Positions 56,687 to 63,145 of a stretch of 64,000 nucleotides of DNA are shown in pieces. Positions within the stretch are counted from its first letter, which is position 1, and every line of letters starts with the position of its first letter. The stretch comes from Yersinia mollaretii ATCC 43969 (GTDB taxonomy: Bacteria > Pseudomonadota > Gammaproteobacteria > Enterobacterales > Enterobacteriaceae). A program made the position numbers and the translations under genes. The notes beneath the pieces were generated by a model, which had not been told where the DNA came from, ran no database searches, and saw only the letters and a program-made list of their open reading frames with translations. The stretch lies in assembly GCF_013282725.1 (NCBI RefSeq), contig NZ_CP054043.1:248001-312000 (forward strand). The letters run 5' to 3'.

Positions 56687-56718
56687 ACGCCAACAACAAT
56701 AGTTGGCGTTTTGCTTTT
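56687..56718 (+). terminator. Leader hairpin with T-run before the DUF4942 gene
   Basis: ACGCCAAC and GTTGGCGT with a 7-base loop, followed by TTTGCTTTT and then ATGG. It resembles leader hairpin 1 (CG, T-run, ATGG). It lies just after the cbeA stop and before the DUF4942 start at 56733, so it can end the operon or attenuate DUF4942 transcription. Confidence 0.7.
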
Positions 56719-56732
56719 ATGGAGTTCCTACG

Positions 56733-57593
56733 ATGTCTACTTCACTCAGCACAGTTATCGATGAGCCACAGGTTCTAACCGGCCACACCGATGTGATTTG
56801 CTCCACCAGTATTGAACGTATCATCACCGTGCGTAACACCGCGCTGGTGCAGATTGACGCGCTTATCCACCAGCTTGAGGATATTTCAGCCATCACCAAC
56901 AGCATTGGCGGTGGAATAGCAAAAGACTGGGCCATGCGACAAGACTTCCGTACTGGCTGTTGGTTCATGGAGAAAGCAGAAACTGCCATGAAAGTGATTA
57001 CCTGCAATCTCGATCGCGGTATATGGCGAGATCTGATGTTGAAATCGGGGATGCTCAGTTTGATGGACGCTCAGGCGCGTGACCAGTGGTACAGGAACCT
57101 TGAGGGGGATAATATTCCTGCCATCAGCGAAGCCAACATACTCAGTACCTTTGAGCAACTCCACCAGCAGAAGGACGAGGTATTTGAACGCGGGGTCATC
57201 AATTTATTCAAAGGATTATCCTGGCACTATAAAACCAACAGTCCATGCCAATTTGGCAAAAAAATAATCATTAGCAATTTGGTCAGTTGCAACCAATGGG
57301 GCTTTACCCTGAACCACGGTTACCGGCGAGACCAGTTGGCAGACCTGGAGCGCATGTTACACTTGCTGGACGGTAAAGCGATCCCGGATAACCGGGGCGA
57401 TGTGACAAGCCGGTTGTATGAGCATATTCGTGCCAATCCGCATATAGCGAAAGTTTATGAAGACGATTACTTTTCGATAAAATACTTCATGAAGGGATCA
57501 GCGCACTTGGTCTTTAAACGATCAGACTTAGTGAATAATATGAATGATATTGTGGCGAAGCACTATCCAGAGATGCTGGCAACTCGCGTGTAA
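56733..57593 (+). CDS. DUF4942 family protein
   Basis: About 286 residues: SNLVSCNQWGFTLNHGYRRD, DQLADLERMLHLLDGKAIPD and YFSIKYFMKGSAHLVFKRSD, typical of DUF4942, the usual last gene of CbtA-type islands. I chose the ATG at 56733, behind GGAGTT. Function unknown; weak likeness to methyltransferase-like island proteins has been suggested for the family, which I cannot confirm. Confidence 0.88.
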   Translation: MSTSLSTVIDEPQVLTGHTDVICSTSIERIITVRNTALVQIDALIHQLEDISAITNSIGGGIAKDWAMRQDFRTGCWFMEKAETAMKVITCNLDRGIWRDLMLKSGMLSLMDAQARDQWYRNLEGDNIPAISEANILSTFEQLHQQKDEVFERGVINLFKGLSWHYKTNSPCQFGKKIIISNLVSCNQWGFTLNHGYRRDQLADLERMLHLLDGKAIPDNRGDVTSRLYEHIRANPHIAKVYEDDYFSIKYFMKGSAHLVFKRSDLVNNMNDIVAKHYPEMLATRV

Positions 57594-57767: not shown

Positions 57768-57787
57768 CGATTCCGAGTCCGGCACCA
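57768..57787 (+). other. Attachment site: 3' end of tRNA-Phe (attR)
   Basis: The 20 bases include GATTCCGAGTCC and GGCACCA, matching the last 20 bases of enterobacterial tRNA-Phe (T-arm to CCA) except for one missing G. A native-looking terminator follows. There is no complete tRNA here, so it marks the right end of an island integrated at pheV/pheU; the intact tRNA and integrase should lie outside the window to the left. Confidence 0.75.
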
Positions 57788-57871: not shown

Positions 57872-59095
57872 TCAGACTGTGCTAGTAGTTACTCGCCATT
57901 TGTGTAGTCGATGCAATGCCTCATCAAGTATCTCGTCGGATTGCACCAATGCAATACGTACCCGACCCGCACCACCAGACCCGAAACCGCTACCGGGAGT
58001 CAGCAGTACACCTGTCGCCTCAAATAATGTTTCAACAAAGTGTAAATCATCGCCTGCAAAGCCAGGTGGCAGCGGTGCCCAGAGAAAGAAAGTGCCTTGC
58101 GAGGGGGGAATGTTCCAGCCCAAAGATGCCGCACCATCAACAAATCGACGCATACGCGCAGCATAAATTATACTATTGCGTGCTGCTATGGTTTCCAGCT
58201 CATCGAGCATCTCTGCCGCCACGCACTGTAGCGGCAGAAAAGTACCGAAGTCAGTGTTGAATTTTGCGGCGCGGATCTTTTCTACCAGTTGCGGTGCCCC
58301 TGCAGCGAAGCCGATGCGCCAGCCCGCAATACCACATGATTTGCTCAGGCTATGCAGCTCCAGCACACGTGACAATGCCCCCGGTTCCGGTAAAGCGGCA
58401 CCGCCCAACGTGCCGTTACTCTGTAATTCAAAACTAATCTCGGCGTAGGCCCGGTCAATCACCACCCAAAGATCGTGGCGCTGGGCAAAATCCAGCACTT
58501 CTCGCAGCTTACCTGGCGACAGTTCCACACCAGTAGGATTATTTGGCGAGCAGATCACCAGCACTCGCGCGCCTGCTAATTGTTCAGCACGCAGAGATCC
58601 CAGTTGGGGTTGTCCCCGTTCATCACAAGTGAATAATTCTACGCGCGCACCTATCAACCGGGCACAGCTTTGGTAGACGGCGTAGGATGGATCAGCCATA
58701 AGCACCGTCTCGCCGGGGGTCAGGCAAGCTAACAGGCTGTAAAATATGCCTTCTTTGGAGCCGAGCAGATCAACAACATGGCGCTCTGGATCGAGTAAAA
58801 CAGGTGCATCAGACGGTAAAAATCGACGCTGATAATAGGCAGCGAAGCGTTGCCGCAAATGACGGTTGATATCGGGACGGAACTCGCCATAACCGTGTAG
58901 ATCGTCGCGGCTAACAAAGTGTTGCAGGCGCTGACGCCATCGCAGGTCCGGGGCTAAATCGGGATTACCGATGGATAAATCCAGCAGGGCTGAGCCAGCG
59001 AAATCAGGCATATCTGGCCGGGGGTGGTGGCGCTCAACCATTGTTTTAAGTCGGATAAAAACATCATTCGGCGTGGGATCGGTCATCGATTTCAT
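57872..59095 (-). CDS. Class I/II PLP-dependent aminotransferase
   Basis: About 407 residues, fold type I: SKEGIFYSLLACLTPGETVL, MADPSYAVYQSCARLIGARV, CSPNNPTGVELSP, then the PLP lysine in HSLSKSCGIAGWRIGF (about Lys252). The substrate is not readable from sequence. It lies 16 bases after the PLP decarboxylase and is transcribed with it. I chose the ATG at 59095 because the longer frame begins with a TTG overlapping the decarboxylase. The pair may process an amino-acid precursor of a secondary metabolite. Confidence 0.85.
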   Translation of the reverse strand: MKSMTDPTPNDVFIRLKTMVERHHPRPDMPDFAGSALLDLSIGNPDLAPDLRWRQRLQHFVSRDDLHGYGEFRPDINRHLRQRFAAYYQRRFLPSDAPVLLDPERHVVDLLGSKEGIFYSLLACLTPGETVLMADPSYAVYQSCARLIGARVELFTCDERGQPQLGSLRAEQLAGARVLVICSPNNPTGVELSPGKLREVLDFAQRHDLWVVIDRAYAEISFELQSNGTLGGAALPEPGALSRVLELHSLSKSCGIAGWRIGFAAGAPQLVEKIRAAKFNTDFGTFLPLQCVAAEMLDELETIAARNSIIYAARMRRFVDGAASLGWNIPPSQGTFFLWAPLPPGFAGDDLHFVETLFEATGVLLTPGSGFGSGGAGRVRIALVQSDEILDEALHRLHKWRVTTSTV

Positions 59096-59111
59096 AGCTG
59101 CAGCTCTCAGT

Positions 59112-60797
59112 TCAACGAATGGGTTTTTCAAACGTTACGACGGCGAGTTCAGCCGGTTCTTCGCGTAAGCGGGCCTGAAAATGGTGAAATTGTGCGGCGA
59201 TGAGCGCCACAGTTTCGTCCCACTGGTGATCGGCTCGTTGCTGCATTGGATAAAGCAGGAAGCCGGTGGTGACCGCATCCGGGTTATTGTTAATGCGATA
59301 GTCTGGCACGACGCTGAAAAGCGGCAGGTCATAACCGGCGTTGACACGCGTCCAACACTCTTGCATAAAGCTCATGGCGAGGTCTTGGTAGGAAAGCGCC
59401 AAAGCGATCAAGTCTGACCCAAAGGGTGCCTCAAAGACCAGCTCCCAACCCAGACTGGATGTGTTCAGTACCCGGAACAGACCGTGGCGTTCGAACGCGT
59501 CAGCAAGCGAATTGCGGGCATCGTGTAAACTAGTGAGGTAGTCAGCATAGCCGTTGCGCCCTAATCGGCGAAGATTGACCCAGGCGGACAGAATCCCCTG
59601 ACTCTGTCTGGAGTTTTCGAAGGTGTAGCGATAGGTGCGGAACTGGCCAAACTGAAAATCCTGGTCACTGTAACGGTAGTTGCCGTCACCCAGCTCATCC
59701 ATAAAACGGTGGTCGCGGGCGACAAAAAAGCTGCTCGCATAGGGGCACAAACCGTTTTTATGGAAATCTACGCCGAGTGAATCGAAACCGTCGATACCGC
59801 GCAGTCGCCGCAGCACTTCGGCGATCCGCTCTCTACTGCGCGGATCAGGAACACGTTGGTGCAATTGCGCGCTATCGGCATTGAGCAGGGTTAGGTATAA
59901 CCAGCCGATGACACTGTCCAAATGCAGGTAAGGGCGTTCCTGCAATGCGTGTTCGTGAGCGAACGCTTCAACGATGGCGCGTACTTCATGCGTATCTTCA
60001 CAATTGAAGTTAATGGTGGTTCCGCCGCAACACACAATTGCCGCGACGCGCCGTCCGCGAGCATGTTGCTCATTAAGTATGCGCCGTAGCGCGTCAGCCT
60101 GCATACGCCCATCGCTGTTACCGGGTACCCGCAGGCAGTTGTCGGAACCGAGTCCGAGTAGGCTGGCGGCATGTTCGACGCAGTAATGCGATCCCTCACT
60201 GCACAGAATGACCAAATCAGATGGCAAACCTGTCCGCAACGATCCGGGAGCGATTCGGCTCAGTGCTGACTTAAGGGCATACATGATAGTGAATTTGCCG
60301 CCGCTGCAGGCTATGCCCATCGCTTGCGGCCAGCCAGCCCAGGCTCCGATGCACCGCGCCACTTTTTGTTCAATCAGCAATGCCTCCCCACCGAATGCAT
60401 CCATCAAGCTGTTGGTGTTGTAGGCGGTGGCCAACCATGCGGCTGCGGTAGCCTCCATACTCGGCTCGGGTACCATATTAAACAGAGAATGTCGTGACTG
60501 TGGACGGATTGCCCCCTGGAAATAGGCCGCGACGTCGTCAAACAGCTCAGTATCATCGGCAGGCGCGTCACTCTGGTCACGCTCAAGTTCATTAAGGTAG
60601 GAGAAAGTGCGCGCGGGGTACTTTGGACCAAGGCTGGCGAGGGCTGCTGGGGCAAAAGCCAGCTCCGGCAGTTTGAGTTGGTTGGCACGTGCTCGCTTTT
60701 GTACGTGGGCATCCAACTCCTGCGTATAATCGATAAGTGCCTGCAGACGCTCTGGTTCGGTGGATAAAATGGGCTGCGGTACAAGATATTGTCGCAT
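59112..60797 (-). CDS. Group II PLP-dependent decarboxylase-like protein
   Basis: About 561 residues. Markers are ACSGGKFTIMYALKSAL, CSEGSHYCVEHAASLLG (stacking His about 204), YLHLDSVIGWLYL (Asp about 294) and the PLP lysine in GVDFHKNGLCPY (about Lys347). These belong to glutamate/aromatic amino-acid decarboxylase-like enzymes. The substrate is unknown; tyrosine and glutamate decarboxylases are alternatives. I chose the ATG at 60797; upstream frame to 60860 is not conserved. Long AT-rich leader upstream. Confidence 0.82.
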   Translation of the reverse strand: MRQYLVPQPILSTEPERLQALIDYTQELDAHVQKRARANQLKLPELAFAPAALASLGPKYPARTFSYLNELERDQSDAPADDTELFDDVAAYFQGAIRPQSRHSLFNMVPEPSMEATAAAWLATAYNTNSLMDAFGGEALLIEQKVARCIGAWAGWPQAMGIACSGGKFTIMYALKSALSRIAPGSLRTGLPSDLVILCSEGSHYCVEHAASLLGLGSDNCLRVPGNSDGRMQADALRRILNEQHARGRRVAAIVCCGGTTINFNCEDTHEVRAIVEAFAHEHALQERPYLHLDSVIGWLYLTLLNADSAQLHQRVPDPRSRERIAEVLRRLRGIDGFDSLGVDFHKNGLCPYASSFFVARDHRFMDELGDGNYRYSDQDFQFGQFRTYRYTFENSRQSQGILSAWVNLRRLGRNGYADYLTSLHDARNSLADAFERHGLFRVLNTSSLGWELVFEAPFGSDLIALALSYQDLAMSFMQECWTRVNAGYDLPLFSVVPDYRINNNPDAVTTGFLLYPMQQRADHQWDETVALIAAQFHHFQARLREEPAELAVVTFEKPIR

Positions 60798-61198
60798 TCT
60801 AATGGATTTCCGGTTGGTTGAAGGTGCCAGGGAGGGGCCAAATTGGCATTGTGTTACCATCGGACTGACGCGATGTTAATTCGGCCAAATAAAATCCAAT
60901 GAGATTGTTCGTTACGCCATATTGAAAATAAGGGACATCCGCAGGAAATATTCGCAATTATTCTTGTGATTTTTAATCTTAATTATCTAATTCTTGTTTT
61001 CCTTACGCTCGTCGAGTTCATCACGGGTGATCCTTAAATGAAAATTTTTTCAGAAAAAATATCATCCAGAGTTTGGGGGCCTTTTTTCTAATTTATACTG
61101 CTCTTGGCGTGAATGAACTTTATAATGTTGCTGAAGTCGGTTAAAGGTCTTAACATCTCAATAAATTCCTGTCATTGAAATAGTACGGTTGTCAGCAG

Positions 61199-61217
61199 TG
61201 ATCTGACCTTCAGATCA
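61199..61217. promoter_or_regulatory. Palindromic operator-like site TGATCTGA-3-TCAGATCA
   Basis: A perfect 8-bp inverted repeat with 3-base spacing, about 400 bases upstream of the decarboxylase start. Such symmetry fits a dimeric repressor or activator. No T-run, so not a terminator. Confidence 0.5.
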
Positions 61218-61427
61218 GTTTTCCATTTACTTATCAACACAATTATACGTATGTGAAGCAGGGACGATAGTTGCACTAAGGTGCAATAATGGATTGTACT
61301 TTAAGGAAGTGAATGTAGAAGATTAGGTAGCGGGGTTTGTTGCAAGGAAGAGCTGCGCGACATAAAACTCAATACTATTCAATTACATATATGAACTTCA
61401 ATTTTTTATCGGATCTTTAGTTCACCT

Positions 61428-61468
61428 ACCACGATGAAGTTGTGTAATGCAACATACAGCATCGTGGT
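61428..61468. repeat. Hairpin ACCACGATG/CATCGTGGT
   Basis: A perfect 9-bp stem with a 23-base loop that itself contains a TGTTG/CAACA-like part. It lies between the hydroxymethylase-like gene and the decarboxylase leader. It could be a terminator relic or RNA regulatory structure. Confidence 0.4.
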
Positions 61469-61589
61469 TAATAAACCTCTCCGAATTAAAATGCAATAGT
61501 GTTGAACTCGACAAATGCAATAAATAATATATTTAGTAACTTGACATTAAAATATTATTCAAATTCATAGGCCACATACACTAATAAAG

Positions 61590-62663
61590 CTATTCAATTC
61601 GTTGATCATCCTGCATGATTAAATAATGGTTAAAAAATTCGGATGTGGCTTTATCTACAGAATAAAATAAACTCTCATCTTTCCATTTGCGGCTAAGATA
61701 TTCAATGGCTGCGACACGAAAATCACCTTGTTTTAAATCTTCAAGGTATTTTATGACTGTATTATGGCTTAGACCTTGTAACTCAGCATTGTAGATCCTC
61801 AACATAATAGCAATCGACTGAAAGAACGGGTCAATCAATTTTTTTTCTATAACCATAGCATCTTGAAACTTGCCCTCACGGCAGAGAGACTCCGCGTGAA
61901 ATAGAATATCAAGCGTAGCATCCAAATTATTTAAAGTTGTCTGAATTGAAGTTGGTTCTATACCGCATTCGTAGGGACTTTTAGGATTTTTAATCCGTAA
62001 AAGGTCACGAGAAGTATTATAATGTCTGCTATATATATGGAATGTCCCTACATACCAGGATAAGGTTCCCACCTGATAACCTAATGTTGTCGCGACAATT
62101 TCGTGAAGTACGCTCCACTCAAAGAAGTTAATACCACTAAACCCCCAAATAGCATCATTTGCTCGAACCGTAACATGCAAATATAATATATTATCTCTCT
62201 GTATAAATTGCAGCCAATTATTGCATGGTACATCTTTTGTATCTGAATAATCACTCATGGGATCAAATAAAGACATCACTGCGCGTTTAGTATTAGGATC
62301 TTCTTGCAATCGGCTGATGACACAAGAAACCTGATCAGTTTTCCCCATCCAATTTCTTAGACGCGGCCCATAAGCGGCACGCCATGTCTTGTTATCATCA
62401 GAAAACTCTATTGATCTCGGTAGGTAATGCTGTAGAAACTCAAGGTCTCCCCTACCGGCAAGTACCCAGATAGTTTCTGCAAGTTGGGCAAATACATTAT
62501 TTTTACGCTCAGGAATGACAAGAAAACGCTCCCTGGGATTTGCAATTTTCGTCAGTGTTGATAATACTTCTTTTTGTGTCTGGCCTCTTGCAACCATTTC
62601 TGTACCAACGCTGTCAATATTCCTAAGAACATCGAGCAATGCATGAGTAATATTCCGATTCAT
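61590..62663 (-). CDS. Thymidylate-synthase-like pyrimidine-nucleotide hydroxymethylase (MilA-like)
   Basis: 357 residues. Thymidylate synthase markers are present in altered form: AAYGPRLRNW (phosphate Arg), DVPCNNWLQF (nucleophile Cys147), VRANDAIWGFSGINF (instead of the usual RSND and FN region) and HIYSRH (instead of HIYENH). The changed nucleotide pocket recalls CMP/dCMP hydroxymethylases such as MilA of mildiomycin, not housekeeping ThyA. It should transfer a one-carbon unit to C5 of a pyrimidine nucleotide. The ATG overlaps the upstream N-glycosidase stop by 4 bases. A phage-type dUMP/dCMP hydroxymethylase is the alternative. Confidence 0.8.
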   Translation of the reverse strand: MNRNITHALLDVLRNIDSVGTEMVARGQTQKEVLSTLTKIANPRERFLVIPERKNNVFAQLAETIWVLAGRGDLEFLQHYLPRSIEFSDDNKTWRAAYGPRLRNWMGKTDQVSCVISRLQEDPNTKRAVMSLFDPMSDYSDTKDVPCNNWLQFIQRDNILYLHVTVRANDAIWGFSGINFFEWSVLHEIVATTLGYQVGTLSWYVGTFHIYSRHYNTSRDLLRIKNPKSPYECGIEPTSIQTTLNNLDATLDILFHAESLCREGKFQDAMVIEKKLIDPFFQSIAIMLRIYNAELQGLSHNTVIKYLEDLKQGDFRVAAIEYLSRKWKDESLFYSVDKATSEFFNHYLIMQDDQRIE

Positions 62664-63145
62664 TTTAATTTTTCCAGTCCATTTTTATTTAACGCTTTTT
62701 CAATAATATCTGTAAATTCAGTAATATTTTTATAGTGATATATTTCAACCCCAGGGCTTCCTGCAATCATTGCGGATACTAATTTATCGCTATCACGATG
62801 CAATACAATCACCGGAATCCGCCACAGAATAGCTGTAGCTATTTCATATCCGACACCTAAGCTTGGTATTGTCACCTCAGCTACAACCACATCGGAATGA
62901 CGTAACCATTTAAGATCTCGATCATGTATCAGCCGATCAGAAAGAGATGACTGTCCTTTAATTGAAAGTTAATAATCACCAACATGTTCTGTAATCACTT
63001 TCCCATACTTTTTAATCTCATTAATTAAGCTGGCATAAATAACAACATCCTCACGACCCGCTCTAATTGAACCAGCAAAATAAATGATGGGCTGTGATGC
63101 TACATCATTTAATGTATGGGTAACTGACGATTCTTCTTTGTTCAT
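62660..63145 (-). pseudogene. Rcl/MilB-like nucleotide N-glycosidase with an internal stop
   Basis: Translation from the ATG at 63145 (AAGGATAGG upstream) gives PIIYFAGSIRAGREDVVIYA, KYGKVITEHVGDY, a TAA at 62971-62969, then LSIKGQSSLSDRLIHDRD, WLRHSDVVVAEVTIPSLGV and a normal end at 62660. The FAGSIRAGR loop and DVVVAEVT...SLGVGYE match Rcl/DNPH1 and MilB, which cleave the N-glycosidic bond of nucleoside monophosphates. Total about 161 residues, as expected. In mildiomycin biosynthesis the MilA product is the MilB substrate, and here the genes are coupled. The TAA may inactivate the pathway. Confidence 0.75.

What the first reader, a model, noticed from the sequence alone, without database searches (positions are those of the whole stretch)
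57872..63145. A MilA/MilB-like pyrimidine pair beside two PLP enzymes: a possible nucleoside-metabolite cluster in an enterobacterium
Four leftward genes: an Rcl/MilB-like N-glycosidase (broken), a thymidylate-synthase homologue with altered pocket motifs (DVPCNNW, RANDAIWGFSGINF, HIYSRH), a PLP decarboxylase and a PLP aminotransferase. The first two overlap by four bases. In mildiomycin and bacimethrin pathways a hydroxymethylase (MilA type) feeds an N-glycosidase (MilB type) to release hydroxymethylcytosine. A second pair that could make an amino-acid-derived moiety is next to it. I know of no such set described in Yersiniaceae. The 790-bp gap means the four may be two operons.
Basis: partly seen in the sequence, partly recalled or inferred. 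Interest (0 to 1): 0.72.

Follow-up and report, generated by a model that had tools for sequence, protein, structure and literature searches.

The report
Uracil-hydroxymethylating enzyme pair, one gene broken
A Yersinia chromosome carries a gene pair that, by its key residues, should make 5-hydroxymethyluracil instead of the hydroxymethylcytosine first suggested; one of the two genes is interrupted here, but intact copies sit in probable natural-product gene clusters of very different bacteria.

Summary
The TS homologue is nearest MilA in sequence and predicted fold, and looks like a 5-hydroxymethylase: D144 matches the water-activating Asp of T4 dCMP hydroxymethylase. It has MilA's ribose signature (K126, A168) but Asn179, the uracil residue, where MilA has Asp. 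Its overlapping partner is DNPH1/Rcl-type, not MilB-type; human DNPH1 cleaves 5-hydroxymethyl-dUMP. Predicted chemistry: UMP to hmUMP to free 5-hydroxymethyluracil. The K/A/N combination forms one clade; in 7 of its 8 other loci DNPH1 lies directly upstream, beside ATP-grasp ligases and an exporter, or NRPS and glycosyltransferase genes, in three phyla. The decarboxylase/aminotransferase pair is probably a separate cassette: it occurs on plasmids without the TS/DNPH1 pair and is 15-20 GC points richer. In the window DNPH1 is split by an in-frame stop, so the module is probably incomplete. The cytosine route and a single four-gene pathway are not supported. No enzyme or product was tested.

The parts
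62972..63145 (-). DNPH1/Rcl-type N-hydrolase gene, N-terminal piece (58 codons; carries YFAGSIRAGR and TEHV)
   Evidence: translation; 63-68% identity to six intact homologues, E 4e-16 to 2e-22
62969..62971 (-). in-frame TAA that splits the DNPH1-type gene
   Evidence: sequence; search reports 1 TAA inside
62660..62968 (-). DNPH1-type gene, C-terminal piece (102 codons plus stop; carries IHDRD, GVGYE and SAM)
   Evidence: 51-63% identity, E 1e-28 to 8e-40
61590..62663 (-). thymidylate-synthase-family protein, 357 aa, predicted UMP 5-hydroxymethylase (E63, K126, D144, C147, A168, N179)
60798..61589 (-). intergenic gap of 792 bp between TS homologue and decarboxylase, partly conserved in Y. massiliensis
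61271..61286 (-). palindrome TTGCACCTTAGTGCAA inside the gap, identical in Y. massiliensis; candidate operator of the PLP pair (inference)
59112..60797 (-). group II PLP decarboxylase, 561 aa from the likely start (ORF reaches 60860)
57872..59131 (-). class I/II PLP aminotransferase, 419 aa from a TTG start

Best explanation
The TS homologue is a UMP 5-hydroxymethylase: it adds the methylene of CH2-tetrahydrofolate to C5 of UMP and hydrates it, giving 5-hydroxymethyl-UMP. Its overlapping partner, a DNPH1/Rcl-type N-hydrolase, cuts that nucleotide to free 5-hydroxymethyluracil and ribose 5-phosphate. Elsewhere the pair feeds a small natural product: the base is joined to amino-acid units by ATP-grasp ligases and exported by an MFS pump, or worked on by a condensation protein, an adenylation-thiolation protein and glycosyltransferases. 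In this Yersinia the DNPH1 gene is interrupted and no such ligase or exporter is near, so the module is probably incomplete; the TS homologue is intact. The decarboxylase and aminotransferase next door are most likely a separate two-gene cassette with an unknown product. Shown by comparison: families, residue signature, co-occurrence, interruption, composition contrast. Inferred: substrate, product and every later step.
Against: Substrate is read from residues only. Human DNPH1 acts on the 2'-deoxy nucleotide (abstracts; passages), which sits badly with a ribose-type hydroxymethylase unless the bacterial enzyme has changed; I found no passage naming the residue that decides this. The K/A rule was proved in MilA, with BcmA as its one aligned companion. 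Phage M6-type enzymes, R/S/N with Asp, fit a dUMP reading but are no clean control: relatives are annotated deoxyuridylate hydroxymethyltransferase in some records, dCMP hydroxymethylase in others. The fold match to MilA speaks for CMP as much as for UMP. TS, decarboxylase and aminotransferase are all under purifying selection between the two Yersinia (omega 0.10, 0.09, 0.13) and stay together while the flanks differ, which speaks for some joint use. Why the TS homologue persists in Y. massiliensis without DNPH1 is not explained.
Confidence: 0.57

Rival explanations
1. One reading: a MilA/MilB pair making free 5-hydroxymethylcytosine from CMP, as in mildiomycin and bacimethrin.
For: MilA is the nearest solved relative by sequence and fold; ribose residues K and A match MilA; a glycosidase gene overlaps it.
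Against: Asn instead of Asp at the base-selecting site in all nine K/A/N rows; glycosidase is DNPH1-type and lacks the MilB motif; MilA falls outside the K/A/N clade, though on a long branch.
Confidence: 0.12
2. Deoxy version: a dUMP hydroxymethylase with a DNPH1 that removes hmdUMP from the nucleotide pool, i.e. DNA modification, pool sanitation or phage defence, not a metabolite.
For: Human DNPH1 substrate is hmdUMP; R/S/N relatives sit in phages and, in two Rhizobiaceae plasmids, beside pyrophosphohydrolase, nucleotide-kinase, dCTP-deaminase or uracil-DNA-glycosylase genes.
Against: The DNPH1-linked clade is the one that has K/A instead of R/S; its neighbours are ligases, exporters, NRPS and glycosyltransferases; no PADLOC model matches the four proteins tested.
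Confidence: 0.16
3. In Yersinia all four genes are one pathway in which hmUMP or its base is joined to a product of the PLP pair.
For: Same gene order and gap in two species with different flanks; purifying selection on the three intact genes.
Against: The PLP pair stands without TS or DNPH1 on plasmids of Enterobacter and Brevibacillus; six distinct TS/DNPH1 clusters lack it in the held flanks; GC differs by 15-20 points; only two genomes, perhaps one acquisition.
Confidence: 0.15
4. Decaying remnant: the hydroxymethyluracil module was lost stepwise in Yersinia and the TS homologue has no role left. This can be true together with the best explanation.
For: DNPH1 interrupted in the window and absent from the Y. 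massiliensis locus and genome; no ligase or exporter relative nearby.
Against: TS homologue intact in both, 90% identical, omega 0.10, though this average includes the time before the losses.
Confidence: 0.3

Closest known systems
MilA (CMP 5-hydroxymethylase, mildiomycin)
   Same: fold over 309 residues including the C-terminal helices, catalytic Cys and Glu, Asp three before the Cys, ribose residues K and A, a glycosidase partner
   Different: Asn, not Asp, at the base-selecting site; 27% identity; outside the K/A/N clade
DNPH1/Rcl (5-hydroxymethyl-dUMP N-hydrolase)
   Same: profile match E 2e-39; G-S-I-R-x-G-R, T-E-H-V, G-V-G-Y-E and S-A-M kept in the six intact homologues
   Different: linked to a hydroxymethylase gene with a ribose signature; interrupted in the window
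MilB / BcmB / BlsM N-glycosidases
   Same: same reaction type and same gene-pair idea
   Different: no P-F-(R/K) motif; MilB entry 4JEM not among the PDB matches
Phage M6-type TS homologues
   Same: Asn at the base site and Asp before the Cys
   Different: R and S (deoxyribose signature) instead of K and A; about 30% identity
PolB UMP C5-methylase (polyoxin)
   Same: acts on UMP for a nucleoside antibiotic
   Different: flavin-dependent ThyX family; methylates (passages)
A. kunkeei pPKS plasmid module
   Same: DNPH1 plus K/A/N TS homologue, 48% identity over 97%
   Different: intact, with three ATP-grasp genes and an MFS-like gene; no PLP pair

Membership tests
MilA (CMP 5-hydroxymethylase) | ribose signature Lys133 and Ala176 | tested here: met
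   K126, A168
MilA (CMP 5-hydroxymethylase) | Asp186 for cytosine | tested here: not met
   N179 in all nine K/A/N rows by MAFFT; HMMER aligns the A1 profile the same way
MilA (CMP 5-hydroxymethylase) | MilA fold including C-terminal helices | tested here: met
MilA (CMP 5-hydroxymethylase) | activity on CMP | not testable with these tools
   no assay
pyrimidine 5-hydroxymethylase (TS superfamily) | Asp three residues before the catalytic Cys, no Trp83 equivalent | tested here: met
   D144, F87; own ThyA has L and W; roles of Asp145 and Trp83 from PMC6400193 passages
ThyA | Leu143/Trp83 and housekeeping role | tested here: not met
   separate ThyA at 126289-127077 of the contig
MilB | F-L-(G/A)-(G/A)-P-F-(R/K) motif | tested here: not met
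   YFAGSIRxGR instead; motif definition
DNPH1/Rcl | profile match and catalytic set (Glu55, His56, Asp80, Glu104 of human enzyme) | tested here: met
   in six homologues; residue mapping by spacing on the rat Rcl row; in the window the residues are split between two pieces
DNPH1/Rcl | intact reading frame in the window | tested here: not met
   in-frame TAA
hydroxymethyluracil-type cluster (as described here) | ATP-grasp ligase or MFS relatives beside the pair | tested here: not met
   none in the window or L064 by tblastn with the relatives' genes
bacimethrin / mildiomycin cluster | remaining pathway genes of those clusters | not tested
   no such gene set was fetched

The most novel reading that the evidence does not exclude
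The K/A/N hydroxymethylase plus DNPH1-type hydrolase is the uracil counterpart of MilA/MilB: a dedicated UMP-to-5-hydroxymethyluracil module, spread across at least three phyla, that starts an undescribed group of small pyrimidine natural products finished by ATP-grasp ligases in some hosts and by NRPS and glycosyltransferases in others, including a honeybee symbiont plasmid.
Probability: 0.5. Interest if true: 0.76.

Novelty: new variant of a known kind. Interest (0 to 1): 0.6.

Why it matters
The papers I saw describe only cytosine versions (MilA/MilB, BcmA/BcmB) of a hydroxymethylase-glycosidase pair. A uracil version would give DNPH1, known from human nucleotide hygiene, a biosynthetic role in bacteria, give a sequence rule (K/A/N with Asp before the Cys) to find such clusters, and point to an unknown metabolite on a honeybee-symbiont plasmid whose paper, in the passages seen, mentions polyketide and ATP-grasp genes only.

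Tried and rejected
A class-level search of 369 genomes at E 1e-50 found only the window. No DNPH1 relative was confirmed in viral contigs, no DNA match in E. coli genomes, no PADLOC model. Island idea: the tRNA-like 20-mer at 57768-57787 occurs once in the genome within two mismatches, so no attachment-site pair was seen. Promoter-like and terminator-like sites were no more than in shuffles (8 against a mean of 11.6; 1 against 1.4). DNPH1 relatives on a Selenomonas and a Segatella plasmid have no annotated thymidylate synthase in the 6 kb (or up to the record end) around them. The predicted model supports the MilA fold but the tools give no residue-by-residue superposition, so N179 against D186 rests on sequence alignments.

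Paper searches. On a UMP hydroxymethylase or hydroxymethyluracil cluster: one search found 2 papers, one relevant (PolB); one search found 0; the listings (19 of 19; 10 of 1,063; 12 of 2,634; 12 of 71) showed none that describes this pair in title or abstract start; these lists are partly capped. on the PLP pair in M. plutonius found 0. Searches gave the A. kunkeei and MilA/MilB papers.

Full report
What is there. The finding's coordinates hold. On the minus strand of a Yersinia chromosome (G000, 4,603,534 bases, window at 248001-312000) lie an interrupted N-glycosidase gene, a thymidylate-synthase (TS) homologue overlapping it by four bases, a 792-bp gap, a PLP decarboxylase and a PLP aminotransferase. 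The genome has its own ThyA elsewhere. Six of 25 have some decarboxylase match, but only these two at high identity (87%).

The glycosidase. The window's gene starts at 63145 and is split by an in-frame TAA at 62969-62971; the two pieces, searched apart, match six intact homologues at 51-68% identity. At the Y. massiliensis locus the gene is missing: the upstream region runs on almost directly to the TS start. Of the 25 genomes only the window's has a full-length relative; G015 has a weak partial match (E 3.8e-5). The profile of the six intact homologues matches DNPH1/Rcl chains of the PDB with E 4e-36 to 2e-39; 13 distinct sequences pass 1e-3, the last being a nucleoside 2-deoxyribosyltransferase, and MilB 4JEM is not named among them. 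The MilB paper says that all MilB homologues linked with MilA homologues carry F-L-(G/A)-(G/A)-P-F-(R/K) (section 18 read); here it is Y-F-A-G-S-I-R. Human DNPH1 cuts 5-hydroxymethyl-dUMP to 5-hydroxymethyluracil (abstracts; passages). Its Glu55, His56, Asp80 and Glu104 have counterparts in invariant columns of the six homologues, mapped by spacing on the rat Rcl row.

The signature and the neighbours go together. In one search, 69 rows were scored: 9 K/A/N, MilA as K/A/D, 54 R/S/N, 3 R/S/D, 1 K/S/D, 1 R/S/V. L059 and L111 were left out of that count (both R/S), and L029 because it is the same genome as L076. Eight of the nine K/A/N rows (L078, nearly identical to L060, left out) were put in the tree and form one clade with support 100/97; MilA is outside, on a branch that the program flags as long. 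In seven of the eight K/A/N loci other than the window (L060, L075, L076, L077, L078, L079, L080) a DNPH1 relative lies directly upstream; the eighth is Y. massiliensis. L060 and L078 are nearly identical, so these are six distinct clusters. In 40 R/S loci and 16 viral R/S loci (one of them is on the same contig as L058) none was found; held lengths run from 4.5 to 21 kb and some flanks are short. Phage loci L112-L114 and plasmid locus L115 were not scanned for it.

What the pair does elsewhere. Tenebrionibacter intestinalis (L075), an Enterobacterales MAG (L065/L076) and Glycomyces (L077): DNPH1, TS homologue, MFS, two ATP-grasp enzymes (Pfam on the L065 proteins; the others by tblastn). A. 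kunkeei plasmid pPKS: three ATP-grasp enzymes, DNPH1, TS homologue and an MFS-like gene that was not put through Pfam. For the L065 ligase the best NCBIfam model is PRK02186, and dapdiamide synthase and alanine-anticapsin ligase follow, all far under their cut-offs. Rhizobium rhizogenes (L080) and a Lachnospiraceae MAG (L079): a condensation-domain protein, an adenylation-thiolation protein and EryCIII-like glycosyltransferases. LysR genes stand upstream in L075 and L080 by Pfam, and in L065 by eye. The phyla are Pseudomonadota, Actinomycetota and Bacillota. The paper on pPKS describes a polyketide set and three ATP-grasp genes (passages); 'nucleoside' has no occurrence in its text, nor has 'thymidylate synthase'.

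The PLP pair. Both proteins keep the PLP lysine motifs by eye. On Enterobacter cloacae pIMI-5 both lie side by side at 68.5 and 74.8% identity; on Brevibacillus laterosporus pBRLA33 at 46 and 41%, followed by a DMT transporter; on Melissococcus plutonius plasmids at 42 and 36%. On Serratia p14VA2 the aminotransferase (75%) follows decarboxylase pieces covering residues 345-582 only, across the record start. Kosakonia has the decarboxylase at 61% without an aminotransferase match in the fetched stretch. None of the four fetched loci (L116-L119) has the TS homologue or DNPH1. GC content: DNPH1 35.8, TS 38.4, decarboxylase 55.5, aminotransferase 53.4%; in Y. massiliensis TS 39.2 against 51.8 and 51.0. 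So the two pairs probably have different histories. Against a full separation: in both Yersinia they stand in the same order; window 57870-63499 matches the Y. massiliensis locus except for DNPH1 and parts of the gap, and nothing else in the compared flanks matches; the window's upstream lipase gene is about 65 kb away in Y. massiliensis. The three intact genes have omega 0.10, 0.09 and 0.13 (Nei-Gojobori, one pair of species).

Reading. Most likely the pair is a UMP 5-hydroxymethylase and an hmUMP N-hydrolase that supply 5-hydroxymethyluracil to a natural product, the module is incomplete in this Yersinia because the hydrolase gene is interrupted, and the PLP pair is a neighbour from another source. 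Substrate, product and fate are inference. A tension remains: DNPH1 as known is a deoxy enzyme, and I could not name the residue that would let it take a ribonucleotide.

Novelty. The parts are known families; the combination of a ribose-type uracil hydroxymethylase with DNPH1 did not turn up (open-access library, listings partly capped). I rate it a new variant of a known kind.

Noticed in passing
L060 14577-16044 (A. kunkeei plasmid OX335326): The honeybee-symbiont pPKS plasmid carries an intact DNPH1 plus K/A/N TS homologue with three ATP-grasp genes and an MFS-like gene, next to the polyketide set its authors described.
   Followed up: partly
L116 12031-14967, L119 11878-15722: The decarboxylase/aminotransferase pair is a plasmid-borne cassette; on Brevibacillus pBRLA33 a DMT transporter follows. 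E. cloacae pIMI-5 also has a carbapenemase gene about 10 kb away.
   Followed up: partly
L064 629-5534 (Y. massiliensis): Downstream of the PLP pair lie a PEP-synthase/PPDK-type gene, a 376-aa protein that looks like an amidinotransferase by eye (no Pfam match at 0.001) and a 286-aa ORF without family; relatives of the first two were not found in the window.
   Followed up: partly
L061 5345-12715, L062 10079-15348: R/S/N relatives of the TS homologue on two Rhizobiaceae plasmids sit near pyrophosphohydrolase and either nucleotide-kinase and dCTP-deaminase genes or a uracil-DNA glycosylase gene, suggesting DNA modification or defence.
   Followed up: no
L099, L100, L102: R/S/N TS homologues identical or nearly so in Agrococcus, Micropruina and Microbacterium: possibly a recent transfer.
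   Followed up: no
window 56703-57593: DUF4942 gene ends about 280 bp from the aminotransferase; with neighbours it looks like the edge of a genomic island.
   Followed up: partly
window 9934-38256: Long leftward block that looks like a type VI secretion cluster by eye; no search made.
   Followed up: no
window 61271-61286: Palindrome TTGCACCTTAGTGCAA conserved in the gap of both Yersinia, once in the window (8 of 100 shuffles also had a match within two mismatches); possible operator for the PLP pair.
   Followed up: partly
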